Origin: Akanthomyces muscarius
Lineage: Eukaryota; Ascomycota; Sordariomycetes; Hypocreales; Cordycipitaceae
Assembly: GCF_028009165.1 (NCBI RefSeq)
Contig: NW_026611618.1
Span: 806,001 to 870,000 of the forward strand
DNA: 64,000 nucleotides
Direction of reading: 5' to 3'
In this document: positions 26,900-58,242 of the stretch, in pieces
How the letters are laid out: each line of letters starts with the position of its first letter
Numbering within the stretch: position 1 is the first letter of the stretch
The notes under the pieces: generated by a model
Database searches by the model: none
Told to the model about the DNA's origin: nothing
Seen by the model: only the letters and a program-made list of their open reading frames with translations
Position numbers and translations under genes: made by a program

Positions 26900-29432
26900 C
26901 TATGCAAGCCCTAATAGGGACAGAGCGCAAAGAATCGTGCCACCGCTGCCTTCGCCAGCGACAAACCCAGCGGCCACTCCAAATGCATACATTTCAAATC
27001 TTTGCACACTTTTCATTCGCCATGCCGCCGCAACTAGAGCACCGATCATCATGGTTGTTGCCGTCTGCGCGTTGGGAAGGGTAAAGGCCAACCCGAATAT
27101 CATCATGTTGGGCCAATAAGCCTTGACGCATGAATATCCCGAGCTGCAAAGAATGTGCTTTGCAATTACCAAAACACTGGCAAACGCCGCTAGCAGGATG
27201 GAAAAATACAAACTCGAAGAAGGAATCGAGGGATTCGGGGTGCTGGCAACGACGGCCACTGCTCGCCAGGCCGCTACCGTTGGCGCTGGGAAGTCGCATG
27301 TACTTGCCTCCCCAGAAATAATGCATGGGTATGCTGTGGTAAAGAGAAGGAAGATGGCAGGCGCCACAAGTGCCGCGACGAGCGTGCCGATGAGCTGAGC
27401 CGCGTACTGGAGGTGCGCTGGGGTGCCCAGTAAGAAGCCGACGCGAAAGTCACCCATGAGATCTTTCTACGCGTTAGTTTGCTTGGACGCCAAGAATTGT
27501 TCTCGAGGGAGATCATACCGCAGCCTTGACATGCTCCAATGTTGGTAATGCTGGCGCCCACCAGATTGAGCCGTTGGGCCGCCTCCACGGATGCTCCAGA
27601 CGCCCGCGTGATGGAACCGAGAGCGATTTGGGAAACTTTGGAGATGGCATTGATCGGAGTTGTGTCTGAATCGGCGAAATCAGTAGTGATTAGCCAGAGC
27701 TATCTTGTCAAATGGCGCTCAGGACTTACCAGTTGCGCCCGTAGCTTGTATGGCAATTAGCGACATGCAGAATGACAGGATCAAGGCTACGATAGCTTCC
27801 AGGAATGGCATGCTGAACTGAAAATGCAAAATTACAACTGCCGCAAGCATGACAATCCCAAGACCTGGAAGCCACATCCACAATTCAATGCCATCTTTTG
27901 CCTTTATCTTCTCGCTCAACTGGCCCGGGTCTTGGCCGACAGCCGCGTACTGAAACGAGTTGTCGCCTGCTCTGCGCACCAGTGACCGCAGCAGGCCCTT
28001 CATTGCAGTAGCGACAAGCGTACAGATCTTGCTGGATTGGCACAGAAGCTCTGCAATCTCCATTAATGGCTGCGCGTATCAACGCGCAAAGCGAACATCC
28101 TAGAAACGCCATACCTAAGAAAGCGACGGCGAGCGTACATGCCACGCCTGGCCACAACAACCAATATCGAGGGCTTGGGTACTCCGCTGTGGAAAATGTA
28201 CTCGACATTGTCGTGTATGATACTAAGCCCGGCAGCGCTGCTTCTGTGCTGTCTGATGGCTTGCCGAATGCTAATTCAACAAACACAAGATATGGCCCTA
28301 ACAAGCCCCTGCGCCAAAAGTTAGCTTGTTGGTAATTGTCAATAGGCGCGCAACATTTTGCGTACCATGCAAAAACAGCGCCGGTAAAGAATGAGCACGC
28401 GACGCCAATATCAACGAGAAACCCAGAGCCAATCATTGCCGGCGACCAGTCCAACAGCCAGCCCCAGCTCTCGGCAGCAATGGCAAATTTGGTAATCCCG
28501 GTCGAGATGCGTGCTTGTGCGATCCAGGCGAACACATGCCAGTTCTGGTGAGGAAGAGTCAGAGACAGCTCCGGAAGGATGAGAAAATTGAGCATGTCAT
28601 ACTCACCCAGAGAATATTGGGCAGGAATATGGAAGCTACGCGTAGTGCCATCGCGGCCACAAAAGCGACCACCGTCCACTTCATCTTATCCCTCGCCAGC
28701 TTCTCACCGCCAGCCGCCGAATGCATACTGCGAATTGTGGCGGCCGTTGCATAGGACGAAGGAAAAACGAGGTTCAAATCTCGCGCTGCCTTGTGGATAA
28801 ATAATTTACGCACTAGGGCTGACATGAGAAATCGGGTTGGAGAATGAACGGTCTGGGTCACTTACATGGGACAATGGAGAGAAGGCCGAAGTAGCCGCCA
28901 ATCGTGGTGAGGATCACCAAGCGAACAAAGTCTTTGGCGGGCGTAGTGAGGAGATTCAGCTGGTACAGCGCGGGGATGCCCGAGATGAAGACGTTGGACA
29001 TGCCGCCGGAGGCAGTCGCCATGGTTTGCGCAATGTTGTTCTCGTGCGGGCCAAATGTCGAAGAAGCTCGCTTTAGAACGGTGAAGCTGACTATAGCCTA
29101 CATGTACAGTGAGTTGGTATCTTGCGACAAGAAGAATGGCTGTAAAGGAAGTGTTCGGTAAACCTTACGCCTAGAACATTGGCCGAGGTGGTCCAGCCAG
29201 CCCGGAGTCCAATGTAAATGTTGGATGCATTCACGAGGACACCGCATAAAACTCCTACCACGGCCGCTCGAAGAGTGACGATGGGACCTGTGCAGTCTGG
29301 TATGTCGGCAAAAGGTACGAATGAATCCGACAAAGCTGGCACATCTGGCCCATCAGCGGCAGGAGTTGCGGCCAGTGCTTCGACACTGGTTTCGTCGCTA
29401 TCGGTACTGGCTGTGTCTCTGTGAACAGACAT
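26900..29432 (-). CDS. OPT-family oligopeptide transporter
   Basis: Proton-coupled membrane transporter of 701 residues, from eight exons: 29432-29169, 29097-28866, 28812-28607, 28544-28366, 28308-28115, 28050-27730, 27665-27519 and 27462-26900. All junctions keep frame with GT donors and AG acceptors. The first membrane region has Asn-x-Tyr-Ile-Gly-Leu-Arg-Ala-Gly-Trp, followed by a Phe-Gly-Pro-His-Glu-Asn-Asn block, a Phe-Pro-Ser-Ser-x-Ala-Thr-Ala block, and a late Thr-Pro-Ile-Asn-Ala-Ile-Ser-Lys-Val block, all characteristic of OPT/YSL proteins. About 13-16 hydrophobic segments are present. As the leftmost gene of the peptide cluster it could move precursor-derived peptides or take up peptides freed by the neighbouring sedolisins. 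Metal-chelate transport (YSL-like) is the alternative. Confidence 0.88.
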
Positions 29433-29789: not shown

Positions 29790-30970
29790 TTAAGCAATTT
29801 GCACCGAGCTATGGTGTAACTCTTTGTCAATGGCCCCGATCCGGTCCCCTTCACCGTTTGGATACACCACCCCTGCCCAGACAAAACATTTTAGTATTCC
29901 AAAAAAAATGGTTTCTATTGATTTTGATCCAACTTACCCTTTGTCGGATGGATTAGCCACCCTGGCTTGAGCATGTCGACGGCGCGGTCTTGGCTCCAGT
30001 CATAGAGCTTCTCCCAGTTTACGCACTGATGCGATGTCGCGTTGACGACGGGTTGCAGGCTATCTTGTCTCCAGATGTATGTAATCAGGCCGATATCGCC
30101 GTGGCACATGGCAGACTGTCGTAAAAAGTCAAGGCAATGCTCTCCGCGACCGCATGTTAGCAGCCGTTTTGCAAATAGTAGGAGCGACAAGTAACTCACC
30201 GTTGTGCAGCCTGTTCATTTCCAGTTGATGCTCAGTAAAGTCGGGAAAATAATAGTCTGTATACATGAATTGGTGTAGTCTCTTTATGCAATGCAGCTCG
30301 TGAAAGACGTTCAAAGTGCCAATGTAGTGGTCGCTTCCTGGTACGGCGACGCCAATTTTTTCGCGACCATAGTGCTTGTAATATTCGGGTGCTACTTGAA
30401 CATTCTGGCCTAAATGACAAATTAGCTGGCGTCTTTCAAATGAAAGGCTTCTACGTTTGCAGTTTCGGCAAGCCGGTGCTAGACGTACTGTTCAGCAGAT
30501 CATGCCAAGCCTTGTCGAGCTCCGGCGACGGGGCACCTGAGTAGATGCTCAAATCTTGAATGTGGTCCTCGAGTGTGAATTTTGTGTCTCTCCATTCGAT
30601 GATGCTTGCCGCTGGCGCTGTAGAAAATGTTACTCAGCACATTCTTCTGACTCGACACGACGTATGGGAGCTGCGTACAATATGATCTTCCATGTGCGTC
30701 AGAGCAAGAAGGCACTTTGCTGGCCGCCACCAGAGACAAAACCAATAGATAGAAACTCAACAGAACCCCTTGAAAAATGAGGAATGCTGGATCCTTCCAC
30801 AATGGTCTTGGAGTTGCGCGCGACGAGTCTGCAGAGCCCTTTTCTAGTAAGCCTTCGCTTGAGCCACGCTCATCTTCATCATGAGTAGCAATAGGTAGAA
30901 ATGCTGGCTGTTTGGCACGCTTAATGTTTGACCAGCTATACTGTTTGGCATAGTGAAAAGTGGCCGCCAT
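29790..30970 (-). CDS. UstYa-family (DUF3328) oxidase-like protein A
   Basis: 305 residues from five exons: 30970-30679, 30617-30489, 30409-30200, 30141-29938 and 29872-29790. UstYa proteins act in fungal RiPP pathways, where they perform oxidative macrocyclisation of the core peptide. Visible features are an N-terminal cytosolic region, one membrane segment (about residues 68-85), the linker motif Ser-Pro-Ala at the first junction, a Leu-Asp-Lys-Ala-Trp-His-Asp-Leu-Leu block, and the two family metal-type motifs: HELHC at about 177-181 and EHC (211-213) in EHCLDFLRQ. The Lys-Pro-Gly-Trp-Leu-Ile-His-Pro block follows. The longer start at 30979 is GTG, so Met at 30970 is used. Compared with copies B and C, the intron inside the first HxxHC region is absent. 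Confidence 0.9.
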
Positions 30971-31450: not shown

Positions 31451-33443
31451 CTAAAGCCATGATGCAATATACCAGGGCTTCGAAGACTGGGGTGCGGTAA
31501 AAGCTTCACCGCGTGTCACCAATTCTTTTAGCCTTGGAAACCACTAGCGAGTACAATTAACAGCTGATTCACAGAACCGGTTCAAAAATCAATTGTTTAA
31601 ATCCACTTACTGGTGTGCCGAATCCACTGGCCACGTCCCAGCCTCGAGCCGCTGGAAATCCTGTAGTATTGCAGCCAGCAGTGCTTCCGTTTACAATATC
31701 CGTAAAGCCACCTTCCGATTCCACCGAGTATATCCAAGGGTTCAAAAAGCCGAGTGCCGATTTTCCTTGCGCCAAGCGTGCGTCGTTGAGCAAAGCGACG
31801 ACACCCGCAAAAATTGGCGCCGATGCGCTGGTACCGTCCACAATCTTGGGCTGTCCGTTCCAGACTGTGACGATGCGATATCCCATTGCTGCCACATCAG
31901 GATAAGCCCTCCCCTGTGCATTGTACAGTCCCTTGTGCTGGTTGCCCAACTTGCCCAAGTACTGAGAAACGGCTTTTTCTTGGTACCTGGGCCGGGCAAA
32001 GTATTCGCTGAAGCCGCCACCACTTACAAAATGGTTGTTCTCATTATAGGCCACCACCTGGGGATGAATGCCGCGCGTCGCCGCCACCGAAGTTATGTAC
32101 GGGCAGCTATCCGGGAAGCGCGCCGCAAAGCGATGGTGGCCGGCCTTGTTGTGGCACTGCGTGGGGTTTCCGACGCCCCAGTCGCCGGAGCCAAAGATCA
32201 CGCTGACGCCCCGGGCGCCGAGCTGTGCGAAGCCCTGGCAGACGCGCCGGGCGTAGGACGGCGGCACTGTGTACTCGGTATCGGCGTAGGAGATGCTCAG
32301 TACCGTTGGCAGGTCTTTTTGCGCGAGCAACCAGTTGATGAGGAGCAAAAACGGCTCATTGTCATTGTCGGGGGCAGACGTATCGGCCGCAAAAGGTGGC
32401 AGCGGGCCACCCGTGGTGTAAGTGACCATGGGCGTCGGATGGCCAATCCCCAGGAGAACTTGCGCGTCCAAGCCGCCCTCTTTGCCGGCACCTTTGTCCA
32501 GCTCTTCTTGAGTAGACTGAGACTGACGATTGATGCCACCGGCAATCTCTACGATGCCGAATTCATCGGCAGCGGCTGCGGCGTCGGGGCGATAGATCTC
32601 TAGGAAGCGTTCGGCGTCCGTTCGGTTGTTAAATTCGCCGGAGAAATTGCATAGCGCCATCTTGTTTTTGTGAGTGGCTCGTGCTGTGTAGTTCAAGGTC
32701 CCATATAGAATGCGTAGACACAAGGGCGTAATGGCGGTTATGTTGCAAGCCTGCGCAGTGGTCAAATTCAAAGGAGGGTTGGCCATATCGATTCCGTTAA
32801 GAATCGCGAAACCATTATGAATATCTTCAGCATAGTCACTCATAGTCCCCGTGGAGCTTTTCGAAGATTTCCCTTTGGTGGCATCTCTAGTTCGGATGCC
32901 AAAGAAAGAATTGGTAGGATAAATCAGATCGATGATGTCGTGGAGGCCAGACGGCAGAGACCATTCTTGTGACCGAACGACGTCCTGGCCCTCGCGGCGA
33001 TAGACATGATAGTTGGTCTTGAGAAGAGACTCTGCCACCGAAACTGTGATATTTGGTATGCTGATCCAATCCCTTGCTGGGCTGTATTGCAGCTGTTTTT
33101 GGCCGATGCCATGGGATTCTAGCCATGAGTGTAGCTTTGCTATTGTCTCATCCAAAGGGGCAATGAAGGTATTCACTTGCTCCGCAGAAAGATGTGCGCC
33201 ATAGCTGTGGTGCAAAGGGTCAGAAATCTCGAACAATCGTTTTTCGAGGCCAGCAAAATTGCTTTGTCTGACTCCGATATGTAGGTGGAATAAATGGTTC
33301 GGGTCCGCCTGCGCAAGCCGAGTCCAGTCGTCAGGCGCAGCATGGCGCTCTTTCAGAATATGCAACGGTGGTATAGACATATCGCCGCCGCCCCGGAAAA
33401 ATATACTGGTGGGCAAAGTGAGTAACAGCCAATATTTTGACAT
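31451..33443 (-). CDS. S53 family peptidase (sedolisin) 1
   Basis: 641 residues from exons 33443-31611 and 31543-31451. The intron has donor GTAAGT and acceptor CTAG and adds a 30-residue end beginning Trp-Phe-Pro. A hydrophobic N-terminus suggests secretion. Residues about 40-180 form the pro-kumamolisin propeptide (Leu-His-Ile-Gly-Val, Ser-Asp-Pro, Tyr-Gly-x-His-Leu). The catalytic residues of the Ser-Glu-Asp family are visible: Glu322 and Asp326 in KEGGLDAQ, oxyanion Asp421 in GSGDWG, and Ser539 in DGTSASAP. Fungal sedolisins are acid endopeptidases or tripeptidyl-peptidases. It is divergent to UstYa-like B and paralogous to sedolisin 2. In this cluster it may trim the Kex2-released repeat units; that role is inferred. 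Confidence 0.92.
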
Positions 33444-33961: not shown

Positions 33962-35109
33962 ATGTTTTTTAGCAAAAGGAAGCTCCCTTTCCTCGTTGAC
34001 AGAGCTGCGATGGAAAACGCAGCGCTAACTCGCCGCAAAACTGTTGATGGGTCGGAGAGCGGCGACTCATTCCTCGACGAGGAGGAGATTCGGAACGTGA
34101 GATCCAGGAGAGCATCGCAAAAACAATGGTGGATTGGGTTTCTCATCATTCATTCCATTATTTTGGCCATTTATGTGGGTACAGCTTTGCGCATGCAGGG
34201 ACAGTTGACGACACTGCGCAAACATGGACTGCAGCTAGTCCAGTGTAAGTGACCCCCGCCGAACTTGTAATGGACATGATGACGATGTTAACTGCCAACT
34301 TACGCTTTAGCACCGGCTTCTGAAGCGCTGGAATGGTCTGAGACGACATTTGTTGAGAACAGCTTTTCCCATGGCCCATTTTCTGGATATCCCCGGGACG
34401 AAATTAATCAAAACTGGCATGACCTTATCAACGGTAGGTTCTGACAAACATCGCTTGGAAGAAAGAATTTTCAAATTGTTGTGGATCGATAGCTGACCAC
34501 GAATAGCTGAAAACATCATCGTTGAGCCTGAAATCATCGCTCGCCTCGGGCGCGAAGACATTGCGCTGGCCGATCCCGAAGGTCGAGGCTATCTTGGAAC
34601 GCTAAACGTGTATCATCAACTTCATTGCATTGTGAGTCTAGACTTGCATCACGCGATGCTGCGACTAATGTTTTTATTTTTATTTTTAGAAACGACTCTG
34701 GCAGTATACTTATCCAGAAGTCTACCGGAAAAACCAGACGGCGGCGCAAGCTGAAGCAGATCGCCTGCACAAAGGTACGCCCGGTTTGCTAGCCCAGACT
34801 AATTCGCTAACCGCTAGATAGAGCACTGCTTCGATTTCCTTCGCCAGTCTATAATGTGCCTTGCCGACGTTGGCATCATCACGTATCAGTGGTCTGATGA
34901 TCGCCTGGTGCCCATCGCCAACTCGACCACACACCAGTGTGCCAACTGGAAAAAATTGGATGATTGGACCAAGAAGCGAACCGTCGATATGATGAAGCCG
35001 GGCTGGCTAATCCACCCGACTAAAGGTAAGCAATCGGCCAATTCGTGTAGCAATTCCATTATTGACTTTCTTAGGGTACGCATACAAAGACGGAGATCAT
35101 CAGCATTAG
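33962..35109 (+). CDS. UstYa-family (DUF3328) oxidase-like protein B
   Basis: 284 residues from six exons: 33962-34244, 34311-34433, 34507-34631, 34690-34774, 34822-35025 and 35075-35109. Each intron shows a GT donor, AG acceptor and usually a CTAAC or CTGAC branch. A second start at 34010 is possible. The single membrane segment is Trp-Trp-Ile-Gly-Phe-Leu-Ile-Ile onward (about residues 59-78). After the Ser-Pro-Ala linker come Asn-Trp-His-Asp-Leu-Ile, Gly-Tyr-Leu-Gly-Thr-Leu-Asn-Val-Tyr, HQLHC at about 172-176, EHC at 206-208 in EHCFDFLRQ, and a Lys-Pro-Gly-Trp-Leu-Ile-His-Pro block. It is flanked on both sides by sedolisins. Its role is probably oxidation or cyclisation of the RiPP core. 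Confidence 0.9.
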
Positions 35110-35408: not shown

Positions 35409-37514
35409 CTATACAATGTACCAGGGGTGATCCCAGCGAAACTCTCTAGCGAGAGCTAAATCTTTCAGTTCCGGGAACCACTTCTGGATGTCAGTAATGA
35501 GACTAAAACGATGACATTTCGTACACGAAGCTGCACTTACCGGTGGCCCTAATCCAGTTGCAGCATCCCAGCCGACGACCGCCGGAAATCCCGTGGTATT
35601 ACAGCCAGTTGCCGAACCATGGGTAACATCGCGTAGCCCCGACCTCGCAGAGTAAAGCCATGGATTCAGAAATCCCAGAGGCGGCTTTTTCTCTGCTATG
35701 AGTGCGTTGTTGAGTAGGGCAACAATCGCGGCGAATGTCGGCGCCGAGCCGCTGGTACCATCCATGAGATGCGCCGTGCCGTTGTATATGATGGCAAAGT
35801 GGTATCCATGAGCGGACACATCTGGAATGGCTCGTCCATGGGCATTGTAAAGACCCTCGTGAAGCTTCCCGATGCCGCCCAAGTACTTACCTACTACCTT
35901 ATGTTGGTATGATGGCCGACTAAAATAGTCACTGAAACCGCCACCTGGGGAACATCAGTTGGCATAACACAAATCAATGTAATCGAGTGCGGGCGGATCA
36001 ACTTACCAGTAACAAAGTCTGATCGTCCATCAAAGGCAGCAAAAACCGGATCAAAATGGCGCGTTGCGCCAACAGCTGTGACAAAGGGACAGGATGCAGG
36101 AAAAGCAGGCATAAACCGTGGAGTGTTTTTGCCATCGTTTGTGACGCATGTTCCATCTTTACCTACGCCTTCATCTCCAGATGCCACTATGACACTAACA
36201 CCTCGCGCCCCCAGCTGCGCGAAAGCAGCACAGACTCTTTTCGCGTACGCTTCGGGCACTGTCTGCTCTTCATCCGCATATGATACCGAGATGACAGATG
36301 GAAGATCATCCTGTTCCAGCAGATGATTGAGCCATTCCATGTACGGCTCATTGGCATTGTGTACTTTGTGGACGCTGGCTTGGAACGGGGGCTGGCTGCC
36401 AACATTCCACGTCTTCAACGGCGTCGGGTAGCCAATCCCTAGAATGGTTTCCACATCCAAAGCACCTTCCAACCCCATGTGGCGATCAAATTGTTCCTGG
36501 GTGTTGGGAGTCTGCTGGTCTTCTGCTCCAGCAAGTAGCACCGTTTCAAAGCTCTCGGCGGCCCCAGCAGCCGCTGCGTCTGGTCGGTAAATATCGAGGA
36601 AGCGCCGAATGTCGGACCGATTGTTGTTGTTGCCCAGAAAATTGACGACGCCCATACTGTTGGTGGCAATGGACTGGGGCTGGTATGAAAGAGTGCCATA
36701 CAGGACTCTCATACACAAAGGGGAGACAGCCAGTCGATTACAGGCATCTTTTACCGTGGGATTGGCAGGAAGCTCATCGATTTTCGGGATGTCCAGGTGG
36801 CCTCTTTCTATTATATCCTCTTCTGCCAGCTCTGCGTGGGTTGGTAGCCGCCCTTGTAGCTCCCAATCTGGAGGGGGTGGCCCTCCGTAGCGGTTCGAAG
36901 GTTTGGGGCGGAAGAATGAGTCAGTGGGCTGGATGACATCGACGTATGGCGCAATACGCTCTGGCATCGACCACTCTGTGGTTCTGACCAGGAGAGTGCC
37001 ATCTTGAATATTTTTAAACTCAAAGTAACGGCACTGGAGCAAGGTTTCCGCCTGCCGAGCTGGTAGTGAAGCTTTGATCCAATCGTTGCCGGGAAATTTT
37101 GTGAAGTTTGTGACGTTGTTAGAGATGAGCCATGCTTCAATCAAGTTTGTCGCTTCGTCGGATACTCTCAGAAAACTTGCCAATTCTCTTCGGTCGAGAT
37201 GTCGTCCATATTTTGTGCTTCTCGGGTCCGAGACTATGTGAGAGAAATACCACATATTAACCTGGCTACGAGCATTAAACCCGATCATGTTCATAAGGTA
37301 ACTTGCCTTCGAAAAGTCTCAGCTCCAGTTGGCTAGTCGCATCCTCTTTTTGCTTGATTCCAATTTGTAAATGGACTATGGCGGCATCGCTTGCTGGCCC
37401 AAGCCTCTTCCAGGCTGGAGGTGTCGCGGTCTTTTCGGTGACACGAGCTTCTTGGGCGGGCAACGCAAGGCCATGGGCTAGTAGCGCCACGAAAGTAATG
37501 AGCTGTTTCAGCAT
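35409..37514 (-). CDS. S53 family peptidase (sedolisin) 2
   Basis: 637 residues from exons 37514-37307, 37233-36007, 35944-35541 and 35483-35409. Intron 1 has a GC donor (AG/GCAAGT) and CATAG acceptor. The last junction matches that of sedolisin 1 and again yields a Trp-Phe-Pro end. Signal peptide at residues 1-20. Propeptide about 35-180. Catalytic residues: Glu325 and Asp329 in LEGALDVE, Asp423 in ASGDEG, and Ser near 543 in DGTSGSAP. It has the same length and domain order as sedolisin 1 but clear divergence, so an older duplication. An upstream in-frame extension begins at a TTG codon and is not used. It is divergent to the DOMON-b561 gene. Confidence 0.91.
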
Positions 37515-38155: not shown

Positions 38156-39556
38156 ATGCAGAGAGGGTTGCTTGGCCGCAGACTTCAATCTTGGAGCTTA
38201 TTCCTTTTCCATCTGATACAATTTTGTGTCGCGGAGCCCTCGCAGTTCTGCAAATTTGGCCACCAGTCCAACCAGGTAGACTTCTGCAGCAGCTTCATGG
38301 CACACCACAATGAATCCACGAACGAGCACAATGTCTATGTCACATTCTCTCACGTTCGTCCAATCAACTCAGCCAAGGGGTGGTCGGCAATTGGCTTTGG
38401 AGAAGAAATGAAGGGTTCTCTCATGGTCATTGTCTATGGAGACCCAGCGTCTGGGGAGCGTCCTATTGTCAGCGTGCGGGCTTCGCAGGGTCATTCTCAG
38501 CCCACGCTGATCACGCCAAATGATCTAGCTGGAGGCGATCTTCGCGTCTTGAGATCTGACTGGACATTGAACAATTCTCCGGTCGGTACCGTCACGGCTA
38601 TTGTTTCTCTGGTTTGCTATTCTTGCACCAAATGGCCGGGGACTAGCATCTCAGCGGCGTCTACTTCTCAGCCGTTCATCTGGGCGTGGAACGATGCCCA
38701 AGAGTTTGATGTTCTCACATACGACGCCCATCTGAAGATGCACAAGCACCACGCGGGAAACGGTGGCTGGGGTCGCTTTTACGTCAATATGGACCATGTC
38801 ACCAGCAAAGTCCCACAGCTGCCTTCAGTACCTTACATTCGTCCAGGAGTTGCAGCATTTGCAGCTTCCGAAGAGCCTGACATCTTTGCCGGTGGCATAC
38901 TTGACGCCATAACGAAATGGGCGCTAAACAATCGGGCGCTTCATATTCATGGCGCTCTCATGAGTGCTGCATTCCTACTTTTCATCCCCGCTGGCGTCGT
39001 AGCCATGAGATCTGGAAGTCCAAACTCGTTCAAATATCACTGGATCATCCAAGTGACAGCCGCGAGCACTATAGTCGCTGGGATGGGTGTCGGTCTTACA
39101 CTCCAGAGGAAAGTCAACACAACTCACCAGATTCTGGGGCTAGCTATTGTCGGCTTGCTCTTCGTTCAATCTTATCTGGGGTTCAAGCATCACTTCGACT
39201 TTGTGAAAATCCGGCAGCGCACATGGATTTCGCACAGCCATATATGGACCGGCCGCGCGGTAATGGCGGCGGCATCAAGCAATTTGCTGCTTGGCATGAC
39301 CATGAGCGGATATCCTCGAATCACAATGTCCTTGGCAGCCTCCTTCATTATCTTTGGGTTTTTCGGGCTCTCGTTTTATGTCTGGAGAAAAGCAAGGATC
39401 ATGGCTAAACGTCCTGCCGACTCTCAAGAGGTCGATCAAAGCGATCAGGCGCATCGCTATTTTACTATTGCAGATGACACTGATGACGAAACGAGCGACA
39501 CGGAGAAAGAGACTGAAAAGATGAACAAGTCGGGCGAGTCTTTTGCTACCGGGTAG
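38156..39556 (+). CDS. DOMON-cytochrome b561 membrane protein
   Basis: Single exon, 466 residues. A signal peptide (about 1-26) precedes a secreted DOMON/CDH-cytochrome-like haem domain (about 30-225), with a Gly-Trp-Ser-Ala-Ile-Gly-Phe-Gly motif. A b561-type core follows with five to six membrane helices (about 255-420). Its conserved histidines sit in HIHGALMS, KYHWIIQ, THQILGL and HSHIWTGR, placed as haem ligands. The tail is acidic and Thr/Glu-rich. Such proteins pass electrons across a membrane to or from an extracellular haem domain. Within this cluster it could supply electrons to the UstYa oxidases or to a secreted copper/haem enzyme; that link is inference. Confidence 0.9.
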   Translation: MQRGLLGRRLQSWSLFLFHLIQFCVAEPSQFCKFGHQSNQVDFCSSFMAHHNESTNEHNVYVTFSHVRPINSAKGWSAIGFGEEMKGSLMVIVYGDPASGERPIVSVRASQGHSQPTLITPNDLAGGDLRVLRSDWTLNNSPVGTVTAIVSLVCYSCTKWPGTSISAASTSQPFIWAWNDAQEFDVLTYDAHLKMHKHHAGNGGWGRFYVNMDHVTSKVPQLPSVPYIRPGVAAFAASEEPDIFAGGILDAITKWALNNRALHIHGALMSAAFLLFIPAGVVAMRSGSPNSFKYHWIIQVTAASTIVAGMGVGLTLQRKVNTTHQILGLAIVGLLFVQSYLGFKHHFDFVKIRQRTWISHSHIWTGRAVMAAASSNLLLGMTMSGYPRITMSLAASFIIFGFFGLSFYVWRKARIMAKRPADSQEVDQSDQAHRYFTIADDTDDETSDTEKETEKMNKSGESFATG

Positions 39557-39736: not shown

Positions 39737-41230
39737 TCAAATTGCAGGTGATGTTAGCAAGTACAATATGATACAGGCAGTTGCAGCCTTTTGCTGTGGC
39801 GATTGTCCCGTGTTGTGGACGAGCTGTGTAATCAGCGACCATGTGTCTGGAACCTGCACTATGTTAGTCGTTGCTGCCAAGTACTACCAGAGGTCTTCTA
39901 CTTACGGTGTCCTGCAAGTCTTTTCTGTCTTTTCGAACAAAGTCCTGGATATCCTGATCAGACGCGAGACTTTGGAGGCGGTGAGCGATGTACACCCGGC
40001 TAGTCTCTGCCGTAGGCTTTGACGAGCCAGCGATGGCCAGCATCTTACCGCTGCTGGTCCCAGTTGCGCCATTTACCATGTTCGAGAGCTCATCGGCATA
40101 GATGTCTTCAGCGGCGCGGGCTATTTCTTCCCTATAAGCGGTGCGCTCTTGTCCGCCCCATTCGGTGTGGTTACGATGGATAGCGGAGAGAAAGCCACGA
40201 AGGCGCCGCGACTGGCCGACTGCCTGCGCTGGTCGGGACGGCGAACTTGCGTTGAGATTGACACTGTAGTAGGCCACCATCATGGCCTCGAAGCTCTCGA
40301 ATCCAGCATCCTCCACAGATGCTCGAATTTGCTCAAAAGAAATGTCCTGTGCATTGAAACTTGCGCTTCGGCTGTTCGTGGACGGGCGTGACTCGGAGCG
40401 CGGCCAGGAAAAACTTTGCCTACTAGTTGCTATTGACGAGTCTCCAGTAGTGCTGTGGCATGCAGATGCATTGCTGCCAAGCTGCGTAAAGTCGGGTGCA
40501 TGGACTGGTTGGGGAAATTGGTAGGCTGGACCATCGTGTTGCTGGCTTTGTGACAATTGTGTCTGTGGAAACATGGCTAGCAATCGACTGCACGAGTCTT
40601 GAGATAGTTCTGGGAGAGTTTTAGCATCAATGCGTCTGTACAATTATGGCCGGTTTGCCTACCGTTTTGGAGGGTAAGTAAGAACTGATGCAGCGGGCTA
40701 GTTGGAGAGCTCGCTAGCCTCGCCGAGCTACTGTTAGCATTGGAAGACACTAGCTGTGGTTCCGAAATTCCCTTTTCGTTTGCATTTGGCTTTGCTGCCG
40801 GAGAAATCGGTTCTGCAGTGGTGGCTTGCTCTGTGGCAAGCTCTGCAGTGTTGGTGACGGTCGTATAGTGCTGATGACATTGATCGGCAATGCAATCTTG
40901 CTCTTCTAAAAAGGGATCAAAAAAATCACCGTCCGCCGCAAAGTTCCACGTCTTCTCCGATGGCTCCTGATTTTGGCCATCCGGTGAGATTATCGATAGT
41001 GGATCGGTATTGACGCTGGCAGCTCGGTTTCTTTGCCCTAAAGAAGTTCCCTCGTTTAGTCTTTTCGTCTGCATATACAGCTGCATTATATATGAAAATT
41101 GGTCTGCTGGCTGAAGTAGCAGGGGAGTGGGCATGAATTTACTTTCTCGTCGTCTTCGTTGCGCCAATCTGTTTCGCCTTCGTTGCTCTTCAAGTTTTGC
41201 GGCTGCGTCGACAATTTTTGCACCATGCAT
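39737..41230 (-). CDS. bZIP-type transcription factor
   Basis: 427 residues from four exons: 41230-41143, 41037-40663, 40609-39906 and 39853-39737. Introns have donors GTAAAT, GTAGGC and GTAAGT, with branches such as ACTAAAC and GACTAACA. The N-terminal basic region has RRNRLAQRRRR, the fungal bZIP DNA-contact signature. No long leucine zipper is obvious after it. The C-terminal part matches the conserved domain of fungal secondary-metabolism bZIP factors: Phe-Glu-Gln-Ile, a Gly-Phe-Glu-Ser-Phe-Glu block, Ser-Arg-Arg-Leu, Tyr-Arg-Glu-Glu-Ile and Ala-Glu-Asp-Ile. The frame is open upstream to an ATG at 41401, so a longer N-terminus is possible. Probable cluster regulator. Confidence 0.82.
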
Positions 41231-43006
41231 AATGACAGAGAGCAATGGTAGATAACGGCCGAGTATGCAAAAGGACAGTTGTTTGGAATGTTTTGAACCA
41301 CTGAAGGAGACTGCGAATCTAAGTCTGACCAAAATGTCATGTTCAGTAGATGCTGCCGTCGCTTGGAATGCCCGGCCGACAACAGGGGACCTTGGCGTCA
41401 TAATCAGGCAACTTCCGCGCTAATTCGAGAATTGACACGCGCCCCATGGACGAGCGCAGGTGATGCTAGCTGGACCAAATACGGTGGTTACTCGGAAAGC
41501 TGCTGTGATTGCATCCTTCGGAGCTGTTGTGTAACTCTTTGGCTCGGCTGCTCTAGTCCACCAACAGAGAGAAAGTTGGCCGTTAATGACTAGTCAGATT
41601 CGTCCGGTTGCAAGCAAGATTATTGGAGAAATTGTACAAGGGCTGTTGTGGCATTATTGGCGTTGCGTTGTACAACATCCTTAGACGCTGTGGTGCTTCT
41701 CCCAGACGCCGCTTCTTTCGTCTGTGCACCAAAGATGCTGCTGTCTGACTTGATCCAAGTACAGCCAATCGGCCAAGGTCTTCTAATTAGGCTTATAAGC
41801 ATAATTCAGACCTAATAGCAAGCGATGGACATATACTCTCGGTGTTTTGTTGTAAAACTTCTTAATTCCTGTTGTGATGGCACCGCAATCAGACGAGAAA
41901 AGCCTAGCAAGCATGTGAGCTACACAAACAACACGATACGAGGCATAAGCGATCAGCCTCCCAGAGCGGAGATACTGAGCTCTTGAGCTCGCAAACACGA
42001 TTGTGTTGACCCGTTTCAGCTTCAAAGTTCCAGTCTTTCCGAGAAGCAAAGGTAGCGGAATGCCAAATGAGCGACTGTTGGGGCTGGCGGTCTACGCTCT
42101 TTCCAGGATTCACCACAGCTTAGTACGACCGCTTTTCCCTAAGCTTTGGCGCGGTGCGGAAACGAACTGGCCAATAGCTGCTTTCCGATAGTGATGAATA
42201 ATAGCAGTGCTCGAAGTGGTAGCGCGTAATGAAGCGTCCTATCACGTCATTTTCGTTGTGATACACAGCATCATCCTGCCGTGCGCTCTTCGGAACACTG
42301 CAGGTATGACCATGACTCTCGCGATCAGCTCGTCTCAACATTGGCTGCCGCTCCAAAAGGAAAAGAACGAATGATCCCCCGTCGCAGGAAACGGTAGTTA
42401 GAAAGCCATTATAACCATTCGCCATAAAGTTGATGCCTTCCCAATAGTTTCTTTTTCTAGCGAGATTCCGGCGCTCCCTGGTGGCGATGGCCTCACGACG
42501 GCTCCCTATGATCTCCTACTAGCCGTATGTTATGCAGGCGGTGGCCGAACTTTGCCGGTTCAGTCTTGAACCTGCAGAGCGACCCTTGTGGTCTTGGGAG
42601 GAAACATGGCGCACGCATCCTCCCACTGCGCCGCTCTGTCCTGTGGCCGACGCACGACAAAGGCTATTCCTAGACTAGTAAACTAGATATTCAAACACAG
42701 TTTTAAAAGTTTCAACGGTTCTAAGGCAGCTTACTGACTAACTGTTCATGCCAATTTCTGCACTTCACTTGTTCCAGCTTGCTCGTGCGCACTCACCTGT
42801 GCTTAGTTGAAACATACAGGATGACTTTCTGCATATCACAGCGAGAAATCAATAAAAGTTTGTTTTACATATAGAATACAGCACCGGTGGGACATATACA
42901 GATCACATGCCTCACCTAGCTGTTAGGCGTACAATGATGGTGCTCTGTGCTGCTTCTCAGCCCCAGTATTGTCACCGTGCTTGGCGTAGTTCCCCACGCG
43001 ATGATC
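41231..43006. other. Gene-poor region inside the accessory block
   Basis: About 1.8 kb with no supported gene on either strand. Frames are short and lack splice signals or family character. A TGTCACCGTGCTTG word near 42970 is shared with the precursor promoter at about 44506. It might hold relics of lost genes, but nothing is identifiable. Confidence 0.4.
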
Positions 43007-44211
43007 TTACCCGCTTCCATGCTCGTGTAACGCTCCGTTAATATGTTCTTTATCATTCTGTCCTTCGGGATATGCCGGTCCTATTTTCAGAAGGGTAAGT
43101 AGGAAAAAGACATGTTGCGGGTTACTGCGGATGCTGCAATACTGTCTGTGCGACTCACCAAGCTGCGGATGAATAATAAGTCCTGGCTTGTACATGTCTA
43201 CAGTCCTGCCCTTGGTCCATTGCGCTATCCTGTCCCAGTTGGCGCAGGTATGGCCTGTGCCGTTTGCGCCGGGCTTGAGCCTGTCTTTTTGCCAACTGTA
43301 GATGACCAGGCCAACGTCGGCATGGCACATGGCGAAACTTTTCAAAGTGCCAAGACAATGGTCCGATGACGTTTAATTGTTAGCTACGTTGCGAGCAGAT
43401 AATCTGTTAAGACGCGCTTGGAAGCCGCTCGCCCCCGTCTAGTTCTGTGACTTACTGCTGTGGATCTTGTTCTTTTCTCGCTGCTCGTCGCTCAACCCAG
43501 GCCAGTACTCGTCTTGGTAGACGTATTTGTGAAGCCATCTCTGGAAAGGTCATGTTGGCACCAGATTCAAATTACGGCTCCGTTTTACGTACCACGCAAT
43601 GTAGCTCATGGTACACATTCAGCGTGCCCAGGTAGCCACTGCCGTCTGACATCCCAACGGCTGTCGCCTCACGATCAAACGCTCGAACCTCATCCAACGA
43701 TAGTCGCACATTCATTGCTGGAATTATTAGCACTATTGCTCTGACATATGTATTTCAAGCTTCACTTACGCCCTAGTAGATCCTGCCAAGCCTTCTCGAG
43801 CGAGGGCCGAGGTTTCCCGACATACTTGCCGTGGGGATCGTTGCCGTCCGTGAACTCGCCAATATAATATTCCACGGCTTCGTTGGCAGGAGCTGTAATT
43901 ACCGTTGTATCAGCATCTTTTGCAATAGAGCGCAGGTCCCGTAGCTCACAGTATAGATACCGCTTCTTCGCGCTTAACCAGCTTCTGCCAAGCAGGATTC
44001 CCATACCCACCAATGTCAAAATGTAGAAGCTGAAAATCGCCAAGTGAAATTTGGCAGAAGTCTTTTTTTGTAAAAGACGAAAAACTTTGCCATCATTTCT
44101 GTCACTATTCTCCCTCGACCTAAGAAGGCCATCGGAGTCCCTCGCATTCCAGCCTTGGTCTTCTGTGATCGTCGGCGTTGAAGCACGCGTGCCTGACTCT
44201 TCTGACTTCAT
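43007..44211 (-). CDS. UstYa-family (DUF3328) oxidase-like protein C, with a defective splice acceptor
   Basis: Predicted from six exons: 44211-43950, 43892-43770, 43717-43593, 43540-43456, 43362-43159 and 43080-43007 (290 residues if all joined). Exons 2-5 have lengths 123, 125, 85 and 204 nt, identical to those of UstYa-like B. One membrane segment (about residues 55-75), then the Ser-Pro-Ala linker, a Leu-Glu-Lys-Ala-Trp-Gln-Asp-Leu-Leu block, HELHC at about 165-169, and the second His-Cys motif at the start of exon 5. The dinucleotide before exon 5 (43364-43363 on this strand) is GG rather than AG, with no in-frame substitute nearby. The gene may be non-functional, mis-spliced or use a rare acceptor. 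It is divergent to the precursor gene. Confidence 0.8.
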
Positions 44212-45024: not shown

Positions 45025-45533
45025 ATGCACTACCGATCCGTTTTCGCCGTCGGCATCGTTGCCACGCTCTCTGCCACTGCCATCGCAGTCCCTGGTTTGT
45101 AGACATAGCTGAGCATTTGTATGACCGGCACGCTAAATGATCGATAGTCTTCGCTCGCTCCGACGCTGATGCAGCTACCGCCTACGTCGTGGATAAGCGT
45201 TCCGACGCCGATGCTGCCACCGCGTACGTGGTTGATAAGCGTTCCGATGCTGATGCTGCCACTGCGTACGTCGTGGAAAAGCGCTCTGATGCCGATGCTG
45301 CCACTGCGTACGTCGTGGACAAGCGCTCTGATGCCGACGCTGCTACTGCGTATGTCGTTGACAAGCGTTCAGATGCTGATGCTGCCACTGCGTACGTCGT
45401 GGACAAGCGCTCTGATGCCGACGCTGCCACTGCGTACGTCGTAGACAAGCGCTCTGGTGCCGACGCTGCTACCGCCTATGTCGTTGACAAGCGCTCTGAT
45501 GCTGATGCCGCCACTGCCTATGTCGTGGACTAA
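45025..45533 (+). CDS. RiPP precursor peptide with nine Kex2-bounded core repeats (dikaritin-type)
   Basis: 151 residues from exons 45025-45094 and 45148-45533. The 53-nt intron has donor GTTTGT, branch GCTAAAT and acceptor ATAG. Signal peptide at about residues 1-22 (Tyr-Arg-Ser-Val-Phe-Ala onward, cleavage after Ala-Ile-Ala). After Val-Phe-Ala-Arg come nine units of SDADAATAYVVDKR; the last lacks Lys-Arg. Unit 3 has Glu for the last Asp, and unit 8 has Gly for Asp2. Lys-Arg pairs are Kex2 sites. The only aromatic residue of each unit is Tyr9. By analogy with UstA (core YAIG or YVIG before KR) and PhomA (YVIPID before KR), the core is probably YVVD, flanked N-terminally by an acidic/Ala spacer. 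UstYa genes around it support macrocyclisation. Absence of tyrosinase and methyltransferase suggests limited tailoring. Confidence 0.9.
45159..45530 (+). repeat. 42-bp tandem repeat array (nine units) encoding the core peptides
   Basis: Eight complete 42-nt units and a final 36-nt unit. Nucleotide differences are almost all synonymous; the only coding changes are at 45276-45278 (Glu in unit 3) and 45456-45458 (Gly in unit 8). The period keeps frame, so units can be gained or lost by slippage or unequal exchange. Confidence 0.95.
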
Positions 45534-48776: not shown

Positions 48777-50309
48777 ATGGCTGATGTTGAAAAGACCACC
48801 GGTGATTCTACGACGAATACCGAAATGGCAAAGCCACGTGGCGAAATGAACGTACCCCAAGCTGATCCTTTGCTGGTAAGCATGGAACACTCCGCATCCA
48901 GGCCGTCCAATATGCTAATGTGACCACGACAGGTTAGCTGGAATGGCGATGACGATCCCGAGCATCCTTACAACTGGAAACAACCTCTGAAATGGGCCAT
49001 CACCATTCTTCTTTCCTTCGGTGGCCTCGTTACCCTCATGTCTGGCGCAATGCTTGCTCCCGCTCTCCAAGACATCGCACACGACTTCAAAACCAACGAA
49101 AATAATGCTCAAATCTTCCTCTCCATCTTCGTTCTGGCTTTTGCCTTCGGTCCTATGGTCCTAGCACCTTGCACCGAGGTGTTTGGCAGACGACCAGTCT
49201 GGATCATATGCGCCTGCTACTACGTGGCATGGAACACGGCAGCTGGATTCAGCAAGTCCCCTGGTGTTCTCATTGTCTGTCGCATCATGTCTGGTATTGG
49301 CGCCAGTGCCGAGTTTGCAGTCACCAGCCCCGTGCTGGCAGATATTTGGACGCCTGACCAGCGTGGCAAGTCGTATGCAATCTCGACATTCTTGCCTCTG
49401 CTAGGGCCAGCTCTCGGACCAATCATCGGCGGCGCCGTGACGCAGACAATCGGCTGGCGATGGATCTTCTATATTCTGTCCATTTTTGACGGAATTCTTA
49501 TTGTTACTGGTGTCTTCTTACTTCCCGAAACCTACAAGGTGATTCTACTGCAAAGGAAGGCAAAGAAGCTGCGCGCGGAAACCGGTGAAGCTTACTATAC
49601 GAAGGAAAGCCGCGAGAAACTAAGCTCAAGACTGGCCATATCATTGACCCGACCACTTCGTCTGCTTTTTACACATCCTACCATTCAGGTTACGGGAATC
49701 CTACTCGCTTACAACTTTGGTCTCTTGTACATTGTTCTCTCGACATTCGCGACGTTGTGGATTGACCGCTACCACCAAAGCAAGTTCATAGGTGGACTAC
49801 ATTATCTTGCGCTGGTGCTTGGTTACACGGTCGCTTCGCAAGTGGGAAGCAGATTTATGGACAAGATCTGGGCACTTCTGAAGAAGCGCGCGGGTGGAAC
49901 CAAGACAGCTCCCGAGTATCGCGTGCCGCTCATGGTTCCTGGAGCTTTCCTGCTTCTCATCGGTATCTTCATCTACGGCTGGACGGCCCAGTATCGCCTG
50001 CATTGGATTGCGCCTGATATCGGCATCGCAATCTTTGGCTGCGGCATTATTCTCAACACGCAAGCGATGCAAGCATACGTCACCGAGGCGTATCTTGGTC
50101 ATGTTGCATCGGCCTCTGCGGCGTCGCAATTTTTGCGCAGCATTACTGGCTTTGCGTTTCCACTTTTTGCACCGGCGCTATACAATAATTTAGGCTATGG
50201 TTGGGGCAACAGTATATTGGGTTTTGCGTTTCTGGTTCTCGCAGCTCCTGCGCCGATTGTTCTGTGGTTGTATGGCGCCAGAATGAGAGCCATCGGGAAG
50301 CACAAGTAG
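48777..50309 (+). CDS. Major facilitator superfamily transporter (DHA1-like)
   Basis: 491 residues from exons 48777-48875 and 48933-50309. The cytosolic N-terminus leads to Asp-Asp-Pro-Glu-His-Pro-Tyr-Asn-Trp, the usual entry to fungal DHA1 drug:proton antiporters. Twelve membrane segments are visible. The loop 2-3 motif reads EVFGRRPVW, and the segment-5 motif G-P-A-L-G-P-I-I-G-G marks an exporter. Members of this group export secondary metabolites. It is the right-hand gene of the putative peptide cluster and could export the mature product or give self-protection; UstT of the ustiloxin pathway is a functional analogue. The substrate is inferred from context. Confidence 0.9.
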
Positions 50310-55845: not shown

Positions 55846-56824
55846 GTTTCCTTTCTTGATTTATCTTTTCAAAAAGTGATTGGGAATCTGTCTCTTGACC
55901 CTTGACTTTGAAATGCTGACAGTTTGTTATATATCTGAGATGGCGCCATTTATGTCTCCGGTCAGCCCGAGCCTTATTCCCCTCCCCTTCCTCTCTTCAC
56001 ATAAAACGGGCTCTTTTCCCACCTCAAGGGATGGAAATGGGCCAGGAAGGCAGCTGCACGCAAGCTGCACTACCACACCCCGTCGCAGAACAAGTTTGAC
56101 AGCACCTGAACCACAAACATCTCCATCCAGTGTTACCCACATGGAAACTTGGCGAATCTCTTTTTAAGTGCTTTTTTTTGCCTTCGCGCCCATATATGTA
56201 CCCGTATTGGGGCGCTGTTCTGTAAAGACCCCTGCTCTTGCAGTGTAAGCTTTGACCTGTCGTCTCTCATTTTCAACTGAGACCTGCATTGCATCTCCCC
56301 AGCCCACTGGCAATCGCTCCGCAGCACCCCGCTGGCAATCGCTCCGCAAGCCCGATTTCCCATATCGGAAATCTCGCAGGGGGAGAACCGAAGTCTTGGT
56401 GCGTTTGCGTGTCTGAGAGCGGGCTTTGCAAGGGGGGGAGGCCTGCATTGCGGCGGGCGCCTGCATGTTCGAGATGCGCTGCGCAAGGAAGAGCGGGATG
56501 TTACGGCGGCCCAGACAACCCGGTGCAGGCCGCTGCCGGAGACTTTTTTTTTTTCCTTTCTTTGGTTATACAAGCGTCAGACACGAGTTGGATGGTGGCA
56601 CTGACACATCAGCTGGCAGGTAGGGAAATCCAAGTTTGTTCGACCTGTCTCAAAGTTAAGCCCGTACACCAAATCACAGGTTCTCTGCCTTCTGTGGACG
56701 CGCAGAGACGTTAAAAAGGTCGTTGACGGGCGATGAGTCAAGGCCGCATCAAACAACATTCATTCCACGATCGTTGCAACTCGGAGTCCTTCCTTTTTAC
56801 ACTCCAGATATTATCAAGCCTATC
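55846..56824. other. Divergent promoter of the P450 and the cyclopropane-synthase-like gene
   Basis: About 980 bases without a supported gene. It contains a short direct repeat CTGGCAATCGCTCCGCA at about 56309 and 56329, and a poly-T run at 56545-56556. Confidence 0.45.
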
Positions 56825-58242
56825 ATGACTTTGATTTCGCTGTTGTACAGTAGCCTTCGCGGCTGGAAGCTGACCATCCAGTCGTTCCTCCGAGAGGTTG
56901 CCCGAACACTTGTCCTCAGCAGGCTCAGCTCATTTTCTTCAGGGCTTCTCTGCATACAGGACATGTACGGAACTGAGATTGCCGTCCTTGGCGATGCCAA
57001 AGCACATCACTTCCAGGTCCCCGCCGTCCTGGTCGTCCACAGCGACTCCTTCTGGCTGCGGGCGCTCCTCTTTGGCGACATTGGCTTCTCTCAGAGCTAC
57101 ATGCTGCATGAGATTTCGACCCCAAACCTCACCGCCGTCTTTGAGTTTTTTGTGCAGAACGCGTCCAGGAAGAGCAGCTTTGCCAGCTGGCGCGTCGTCG
57201 GCCTCTTCGGCGCCCTGACCCGCGCCGCGTTCAAGAGCGCCAACAACGTCTCGGCCGCCAAGCTCAACGCCATTGCGCACTACTCGCTCGGCAACGACAT
57301 GTTCTCCGCCTTTTTGAGCCCGGACATGACGTACTCGGCCGCGCTGTGGCTGCCCAGCGCGGATCCGCGCTCGCAGACCGAGACCCTGGAGGAGGCGCAG
57401 ATGCGCAAGCTGCAGCATGCCATTTCCGCTGCGCGCATCAAGCCCACGGACCACGTTCTGGAGGTCGGCACCGGATGGGGCAGCTTTGCGATTCTGGCGG
57501 CCAGGACGACGGGCTGTCGTGTCACGACTGTGACGCCGAGCCTGGCGCAGAAACGACTTGTCGAAGGCAGGATTGCGGATGCGAAGCTCTCCGAGCAGGT
57601 TGAGGTGTTTCTCGGCGACTACCGCGAGGTCGGGTCGCTCAACGTCAAGTTTGACAAGATTGTCAGCATCGAGATGATTGAGCACGTCGGCCACAGGTAC
57701 CTCGATACGTACTTTGCGTGCATGGATCGCTACCTGAAAGACGACGGCCTCGGATACTTTCAGTGTATCACCATCCCCGAGGCGCGGTACGACGGGTACG
57801 TCAAGGGCGAGGACTTTATCCAAAAGTACATTTTCCCAGGCGGTCATCTGCCCACAGTCAGCGGCCTGGTCTCGAGCATCAATGCCGGATCCAAGGGCAC
57901 GCTGGTTGTCGAAGAAATCATGTCCTTTGGCGGGCACTATGTGAAGACGCTGCAGTGCTGGAGGGACAATTTCCTCGCCAATTTCGATGACATGATTGCT
58001 CCGGCGCTGCGCAAGGAGCACCCGCGCATGACGGACGCCGACTTGGATGTATTCAAGCGAAAGTGGGATGTAAGATGTATTTGCCGTACTTGCCGATTTT
58101 CTTTGTAGCTGACATTTACCAGTATTACTTTTGCTACTGTGAGGCCGGGTTCAAGACCAAGACCATCGGCGACGTCGGCATCACCGTCGGAAGGGAGGGT
58201 GCACTGGAGCTCCTCGAAGGTATTCCATTTCACAGAGATTAA
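56825..58242 (+). CDS. Cyclopropane-fatty-acyl-phospholipid synthase family methyltransferase
   Basis: 454 residues from exons 56825-58069 and 58123-58242; the intron has donor GTAAGA, branch GCTGAC and acceptor CCAG. SAM-dependent enzymes of this family add a methylene or methyl group to lipid acyl chains. Visible features are an N-terminal membrane-associated domain, an entry motif His-Tyr-Ser-Leu-Gly-Asn-Asp, SAM motif I VLEVGTGWGSFAI (about residue 214), and Ile-Glu-Met-Ile-Glu-His-Val-Gly with its catalytic-region acid residues. Others are Phe-Ile-Gln-Lys-Tyr-Ile-Phe-Pro-Gly-Gly and the C-terminal Tyr-Tyr-Phe-Cys-Tyr-Cys-Glu-Ala-Gly-Phe. The frame is open upstream only from a TTG, so the first ATG is used. 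Sphingolipid C9-methyltransferase is a related alternative, but the N-terminus lacks its paired membrane helices. Confidence 0.9.

What the first reader, a model, noticed from the sequence alone, without database searches (positions are those of the whole stretch)
45025..45533. New dikaritin-type RiPP precursor with nine tandem core peptides
Sequence shows a signal peptide, nine 14-residue units ending in Lys-Arg, one Tyr per unit, and near-perfect 42-bp repeats. Known families: UstA, PhomA and related precursors place a Tyr-containing core directly before KR and are cyclised by UstYa proteins. The inferred core YVVD matches the Tyr-x-(Ile/Val)-x pattern of ustiloxin but is not one I know. This is the strongest candidate for an undescribed system in the window.
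Basis: partly seen in the sequence, partly recalled or inferred. Interest (0 to 1): 0.95.

Follow-up and report, generated by a model that had tools for sequence, protein, structure and literature searches.

The report
Fungal cyclic-peptide precursor with nine repeats
An insect-killing fungus carries a gene for a secreted protein made of nine near-identical short peptides, beside enzymes of the kind that tie such peptides into rings; the repeat family was already in print, but its product is unknown and an electron-transfer protein seems to travel with the cluster.

Summary
Window 45025-45533 encodes a 151-aa secretory-looking precursor with one 53-nt intron and nine units SDADAATAYVVD; eight end in Lys-Arg, the ninth at the stop. 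Unit differences are mostly synonymous (203 against 18, summed pairwise). Three UstYa-family genes lie within about 15 kb.

The genome matches Akanthomyces muscarius, an insect pathogen used in biocontrol. It holds a second precursor of this family, also beside UstYa genes.

The family is not new: Le Marquer 2019 lists DADAATXYV[A/V]D as a conserved Kex2-processed motif. Umemura's DUF3328-linked type G-6 is probably the same. My searches found no report of its product.

The cassette may be new. Both loci hold UstYa, an S53 tripeptidyl-peptidase-like protease, an OPT transporter and a CDH-cytochrome membrane protein. Four of eight CDH-cyt genes lie within 20 kb of UstYa, against 2.5% of the genome. 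Likeliest reading: Kex2-released, UstYa-modified peptide, with the cytochrome as possible electron partner (untested). No tyrosinase or S41 peptidase lies nearby, so the strict dikaritin definition is not met.

The parts
45025..45094 (+). Precursor exon 1: start and signal-peptide-like N-terminus
   Evidence: Spliced translation; hydrophobic N-terminus
45095..45147 (+). 53-nt intron, GT..AG
   Evidence: Sequence; not checked against RNA
45148..45533 (+). Precursor exon 2: nine units SDADAATAYVVD, eight followed by KR
   Evidence: homologs
43205..44211 (-). UstYa family gene Y3, divergent from the precursor; HELHC motif present; the last intron has no AG acceptor in this assembly
   Evidence: PF11807; exon reading
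34010..35030 (+). UstYa family gene Y2; two HxxHC motifs (HQLHC, HKEHC); 3' end approximate
   Evidence: PF11807; exon model; motifs
29984..30970 (-). UstYa family gene Y1; two HxxHC motifs (HELHC, HNEHC); reciprocal best match of a UstYa at the second precursor locus; 3' end approximate
   Evidence: PF11807; model; comparison; motifs
38156..39556 (+). CDH-cyt + cytochrome b561 membrane protein (CYBDOM-like), single open frame
   Evidence: PF16010 and PF03188; genome-wide placement
35412..37318 (-). S53 peptidase (pro-kumamolisin domain), TPP1-like; two open frames, intron between them not resolved
   Evidence: PF09286; PDB TPP1 match; closest to the S53 of the second locus
31569..33443 (-). 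S53 peptidase (pro-kumamolisin domain), TPP1-like, single open frame
   Evidence: PF09286; PDB TPP1 match
26939..29067 (-). OPT oligopeptide transporter family gene, in several exons
   Evidence: PF03169
45846..47516 (+). Zn2Cys6 transcription-factor gene (exon-level, limits approximate); possible cluster regulator
   Evidence: PF00172, PF04082; membership of the cluster inferred from position
48924..50309 (+). MFS transporter; possible exporter
   Evidence: PF07690; membership inferred from position

Best explanation
The gene encodes the precursor of a secreted, Kex2-released and UstYa-modified short peptide (an ustiloxin-like RiPP in the wide sense) of the already listed DADAATXYV[A/V]D family. 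Steps: the precursor enters the secretory pathway (inferred from the N-terminus); one or more of the three UstYa-type membrane oxidases act on the single Tyr of each unit, probably joining it to a neighbouring residue (inferred from the family); a kexin cuts after the eight KR sites (inferred from the sites); the TPP1-like S53 peptidases of the cluster trim the N-terminal spacer, in the register SDA/DAA/TAYVVD (hypothesis); an MFS or OPT transporter moves the product (weak inference). The CDH-cytochrome/b561 protein of the cluster may pass electrons to the UstYa enzymes (speculative). Target and function are unknown; a role against insect host or competitors is only a guess from the organism.
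For: Precursor anatomy and strong purifying constraint. Three UstYa genes nearby, two of them with both HxxHC motifs. A second family member in the same genome, units DADAATAYKADKR, with two UstYa genes within about 4 kb. Y1 and the second locus's UstYa (C1a) are reciprocal best among 31 UstYa stretches of the genome. S53 and CDH-cyt proteins of the two loci also pair best outside their own locus. Relatives of the precursor appear in Blastomyces, Histoplasma, Nemania and Beauveria. Published: conserved KEP motif; type G-6, with several of the same genera, has DUF3328 genes near 46 of 49 members.
Against: No expression or chemical evidence. Y3, the nearest UstYa gene, has no AG acceptor for its last intron in this assembly, so that gene may be defective, mis-assembled or unusually spliced. 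No tyrosinase or S41 peptidase in the window. The OPT genes of the two loci are not exclusive partners: the window OPT matches two OPT genes elsewhere about as well (43% against 48% identity). The second locus also carries an S9 dipeptidyl peptidase not seen in the window Pfam scans.
Confidence: 0.83

Rival explanations
1. The precursor yields linear, unmodified secreted peptides (a pheromone-like or signalling KEP) and the UstYa genes serve something else.
For: Kex2 repeat layout is shared with alpha-pheromone precursors. Dipeptide and tripeptide peptidases near the loci would suit pheromone-like trimming. Modification is not shown.
Against: Two loci of one genome both pair this precursor type with UstYa. 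Umemura reports that almost all mating-factor or pheromone KEPs (with three exceptions) lack DUF3328 neighbours. The units hold no Trp or Cys.
Confidence: 0.1
2. The window cluster is decaying or silent: the precursor is intact but a main tailoring gene is not, and the C1 locus is the working copy.
For: Y3's last intron lacks an AG acceptor; the spliced precursor itself was not among the annotated proteins found, while the C1 paralog was.
Against: Precursor units are held constant with pN/pS 0.03; Y1, Y2, the CDH-cyt protein and one S53 have open models. Absence from an annotation set is weak evidence.
Confidence: 0.15
3. An ordinary repetitive surface or cell-wall protein.
For: Tandem acidic/Ala-rich repeat; NCBIfam gives only a compositional match to an adhesin model far below its cut-off (19.1 against 1700 bits).
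Against: Regular KR sites every 14 residues, the published KEP motif and UstYa neighbours.
Confidence: 0.03

Closest known systems
Conserved KEP motif 3, DADAATXYV[A/V]D (Le Marquer et al. 2019, PMC6339444)
   Same: The unit DADAATAYVVD fits the published motif exactly.
   Different: The section read gives no UstYa neighbours, cluster or product for it; the second A. muscarius precursor (AYKAD) departs at the position after Tyr.
KEP type G-6 (#13) of Umemura 2020 (PMC7329392)
   Same: Contains Y and several D; DUF3328 genes near 46 of 49 members; genera include Blastomyces, Histoplasma and Beauveria, also seen.
   Different: The profile is only in a figure that is not held, so identity with this family is inferred, not read.
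Ustiloxins and phomopsins (dikaritins in the strict sense)
   Same: Signal peptide, tandem Kex2-cut units, one Tyr, multiple UstYa genes, Zn2Cys6 regulator, transporter, peptidases.
   Different: No tyrosinase or S41 peptidase near; S53 peptidases and a CDH-cytochrome/b561 protein instead; different unit sequence.
Asperipin-2a cluster
   Same: UstYa-type oxidase with Kex2 repeat precursor and no tyrosinase listed in the four-gene cluster (passages).
   Different: One UstYa homolog and an isoflavone reductase-like gene there; three UstYa genes and peptidases here.

Membership tests
KEP family DADAATXYV[A/V]D | Repeated units with this motif between Kex2 sites | tested here: met
   All nine units contain xADAATAYVV[D/E]; seven match the motif exactly, one has E for the last D (VVE) and one G for the first D (SGADA)
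Umemura type G-6 | Profile of the G-6 repeat | tested here: inconclusive
   Only genera, Y/D content and DUF3328 counts could be read
UstYa-type RiPP (dikaritin, wide sense: DUF3328 class-defining) | UstYa/DUF3328 protein with two HxxHC motifs near the precursor | tested here: met
   Y1 and Y2 each have two; Y3 first motif only, the second would span the intron without AG acceptor
UstYa-type RiPP (dikaritin, wide sense) | Signal peptide and tandem KR-separated units with Tyr | tested here: met
   signal peptide by hydrophobicity and eye only
Dikaritin, strict five-gene definition (Ding et al., as retold in PMC12048977) | Tyrosinase in the cluster | tested here: not met
   13 tyrosinase matches in the genome, none in the window or at the C1 locus
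Dikaritin, strict five-gene definition | Methyltransferase in the cluster | tested here: inconclusive
   Only a CMAS-type methyltransferase at 56660-58105, about 11 kb away; 30 chosen open frames between 25 and 64 kb were scanned, short exons could be missed
Dikaritin, strict five-gene definition | Transporter or peptidase in the cluster | tested here: met
   S53 x2, OPT, MFS
Ustiloxin/phomopsin cluster content | S41 family peptidase | tested here: not met
   2 S41 matches in the genome, neither on C11 or C1
UstYa-type RiPP | Cross-linked or otherwise oxidised peptide product | not testable with these tools
   Needs mass spectrometry
Fungal alpha-pheromone precursor | Trp-containing repeated peptide (recalled in part; WXW for the yeast type) | tested here: not met
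   No Trp in the 151 residues

The most novel reading that the evidence does not exclude
A CDH-cytochrome/b561 (CYBDOM-like) membrane protein is a dedicated electron-transfer partner of UstYa-type peptide oxidases, conserved with DADAAT-type clusters and their relatives across several classes of Pezizomycotina. This would resemble the way such haem proteins are thought to feed electrons to other copper enzymes (recalled).
Probability: 0.3. Interest if true: 0.78.

Novelty: new member of a known kind. Interest (0 to 1): 0.5.

Why it matters
The precursor family runs from insect pathogens and endophyte-like Xylariales to human-pathogenic Onygenales (Blastomyces, Histoplasma), yet I found no product or function for it. 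A biocontrol species with two precursor loci is a safe and tractable place to find the compound. If the cytochrome b561 link is real, it would point to the missing redox partner of UstYa enzymes and give genome miners a new marker for such clusters.

Tried and rejected
Rejected: alpha-pheromone precursor (no Trp in the protein; UstYa neighbours), surface repeat protein (see rivals), and 'undescribed family' (motif in print).

Led nowhere: (a short degenerate pattern matched hundreds of places, control equal in order, useless). Rfam scan of the window: 0 matches. PDB sequence search for UstYa Y1: nothing significant, and the fold of its Cordyceps relative P0012 (mean pLDDT 74.5, one long predicted helix at 65-92 that fits a membrane anchor) matched no solved structure at E <= 0.001. 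The CDH-cyt fold was run from one sequence and is too poor to use (pLDDT 39). No PDB sequence match for the CDH-cyt protein at E <= 0.01. The C2 CDH-cyt/UstYa pair has no repeat precursor in the 26 kb scanned.

Limits: no fungal genome collection could be searched for synteny. The cross-species link of CDH-cyt and UstYa rests on equal contig lengths (13 of 87 CDH-cyt hits; 7 of the 13 contigs are under 200 kb) and on near locus tags, 63 names. 74 of 87 CDH-cyt hits showed no such coincidence, which may be absence or only the representative-per-cluster listing. In the tree the four UstYa-linked A. muscarius CDH-cyt proteins do not form one clade among the homologs, and several have long branches; only the four unlinked ones group together (SH-aLRT 99), and these were partial open frames. 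Literature search asked for three of six terms, so a paper holding only two (for example cytochrome b561 and UstYa) would be missed. Protein searches scored only a capped list of candidates.

Full report
What is there. The sequence at 45025-45533 is as described, with small corrections. Spliced across a 53-nt GT..AG intron (45095-45147) it gives 151 aa: a hydrophobic N-terminus, then nine units SDADAATAYVVD, eight followed by KR and the ninth by the stop. TRF finds the array at 42 bp and also at 126 bp, three units; in 20 shuffled windows the best TRF score was 57 against 477 and 552. Among the nine units, pairwise differences fall 203 times in synonymous codons and 18 times in non-synonymous ones (pN/pS about 0.03). 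The peptide, not the DNA, is what has been kept.

Which organism. G000 has 36,193,312 bases in 12 contigs. Contig C1 is 7,450,776 long, the same as the contig of a protein named LMH87_005652 of Akanthomyces muscarius, and C1 encodes that protein's repeats. The published A. muscarius assembly has 12 contigs, 36.2 Mb and a largest contig of 7.45 Mb (passages of PMC10323777).

Neighbours. PF11807 (UstYa) matches at window 29984-30678, 34506-34979 and 43205-44061 (window offset 806000). The models Y1 and Y2 each have two HxxHC motifs, the mark suggested for RiPP-related DUF3328 proteins (PMC12048977, section 23). Y3, next to the precursor and divergent from it, has the first motif, but its last intron lacks an AG acceptor in this assembly; I describe this and go no further. 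Other genes, by Pfam on 30 chosen open frames: two S53 peptidases with TPP1-like matches in the PDB, a CDH-cyt/cytochrome b561 protein, an OPT transporter, a Zn2Cys6 factor and an MFS transporter. Further off lie an S1/P1 nuclease, a P450 and a CMAS-type methyltransferase.

A second locus in the same genome. The precursor protein finds one other place, C1:2061901-2062353: a single-exon array of eight units ending AYKADKR, a short unit SEAEPVYRR and a last AYRAD. UstYa genes lie at C1:2058655-2059437 and 2060223-2060691, OPT at 2063022-2065352, S53 at 2067581, CDH-cyt at 2068724 and 2045251, and a DPP IV-type S9 peptidase at 2055586. Among 31 UstYa stretches of the genome, Y1 and the C1 UstYa C1a are each other's best match outside themselves (55% over 242 and 65% over 184 aligned residues), while Y2 and Y3 have no such clear partner. 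The second window S53 is closest to the C1 S53 (52%), and the window CDH-cyt to the C1 CDH-cyt (38%). The OPT pair is not exclusive.

The cytochrome. The genome has eight CDH-cyt genes. Four lie within 20 kb of a UstYa match (1.4, 3.9, 8.5 and 14 kb), the other four at more than 100 kb; 2.5% of the genome lies that close, binomial P 2.6e-5, or 5e-4 if the two C1 genes count as one. Among 87 homologs of the window CDH-cyt protein, 13 lie on a contig of exactly the same length as one holding a Y1 homolog; seven of those contigs are under 200 kb. Locus tags are adjacent or near in Glutinoglossum americanum (003917/003918), Aphanocladium album (04173/04175) and Colletotrichum higginsianum (06570/06564). 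This is indirect but points one way. UstYa enzymes have been reported as copper-dependent: I saw only the title of Chiang et al. 2025 in a reference list. CYBDOM proteins pass electrons across membranes in plants and insects (abstracts in the listing). An electron-partner role is my inference. No paper listed holds both cytochrome b561 or DOMON and UstYa, DUF3328 or ustiloxin, with the limit stated under Tried and rejected.

What is known. Le Marquer et al. 2019 (sections 10 and 16 read) list DADAATXYV[A/V]D among new conserved KEP motifs of Pezizomycotina. Umemura 2020 (abstract, sections 6 and 7) lists type G-6: 49 KEPs, 19 genera including Blastomyces, Histoplasma and Beauveria, 46 with DUF3328 genes within 15 genes, with Y and several D in the profile; I take it to be this family but could not see the figure. 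The string DADAAT occurs in two papers of the library, Le Marquer and an unrelated Pseudomonas paper. Relatives found here: Blastomyces (MYVVD), Histoplasma (RYVVD), Nemania (YPVG/YSVG), Beauveria mimosiformis (SYVRD), a Penicillium fragment, and unnamed ones; 10 hits in all from a capped candidate list, one of them the A. muscarius C1 paralog. The Tyr and most of DADAAT are shared; the residues on either side of the Tyr vary. That is the pattern expected of a recognition part plus a varied core, so the core need not be YVVD.

Mechanism. Shown: gene structure, constraint, neighbours, pairing of two loci. Inferred from family knowledge: secretion, kexin cutting, UstYa oxidation at Tyr. Hypothesis: S53 tripeptidyl trimming (SDA, DAA, leaving TAYVVD) and electron supply by the cytochrome. 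Function of the product: unknown; an action on insects or competitors is a guess.

Verdict. A real, well-formed precursor of a listed but chemically unknown fungal peptide family; not new as a family. The cassette lacks the tyrosinase and S41 peptidase of the strict dikaritins, so I file it as UstYa-type in the wide sense only. Most interesting is the recurring cytochrome b561 neighbour.

Noticed in passing
window 43205-44211 (-): The UstYa gene next to the precursor has no AG acceptor at its last intron in this assembly: possible defect, assembly error or unusual splicing.
   Followed up: partly
L015 5939-6393 (C1:2061.9-2062.4 kb): Second precursor of the family in the same genome; its public annotation (P0002, LMH87_005652) leaves the repeat frame part-way, as if an intron had been called inside the array.
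   Followed up: yes
L015 near 6300; protein P0005 (Nemania serpens): A short second kind of unit, ending EPVYRR, occurs once in the C1 precursor (SEAEPVYRR) and once in the Nemania precursor (AELDEPVYRR).
   Followed up: no
L018 1194-3450 (C2:2855-2857 kb): CDH-cyt/b561 gene 1.4 kb from a UstYa gene, with no repeat precursor found in 26 kb around: a possible precursor-less or single-core cluster.
   Followed up: partly
window 40580-41419 (-): Open frame with a basic run RRRNRLAQRRRRE, bZIP-like by eye; no Pfam match. Possible second regulator of the cluster.
   Followed up: no
window 45156-45530 and L015 5951-6289: Both repeat arrays show a higher-order 126-bp (three-unit) period, suggesting growth by three-unit duplications.
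   Followed up: no
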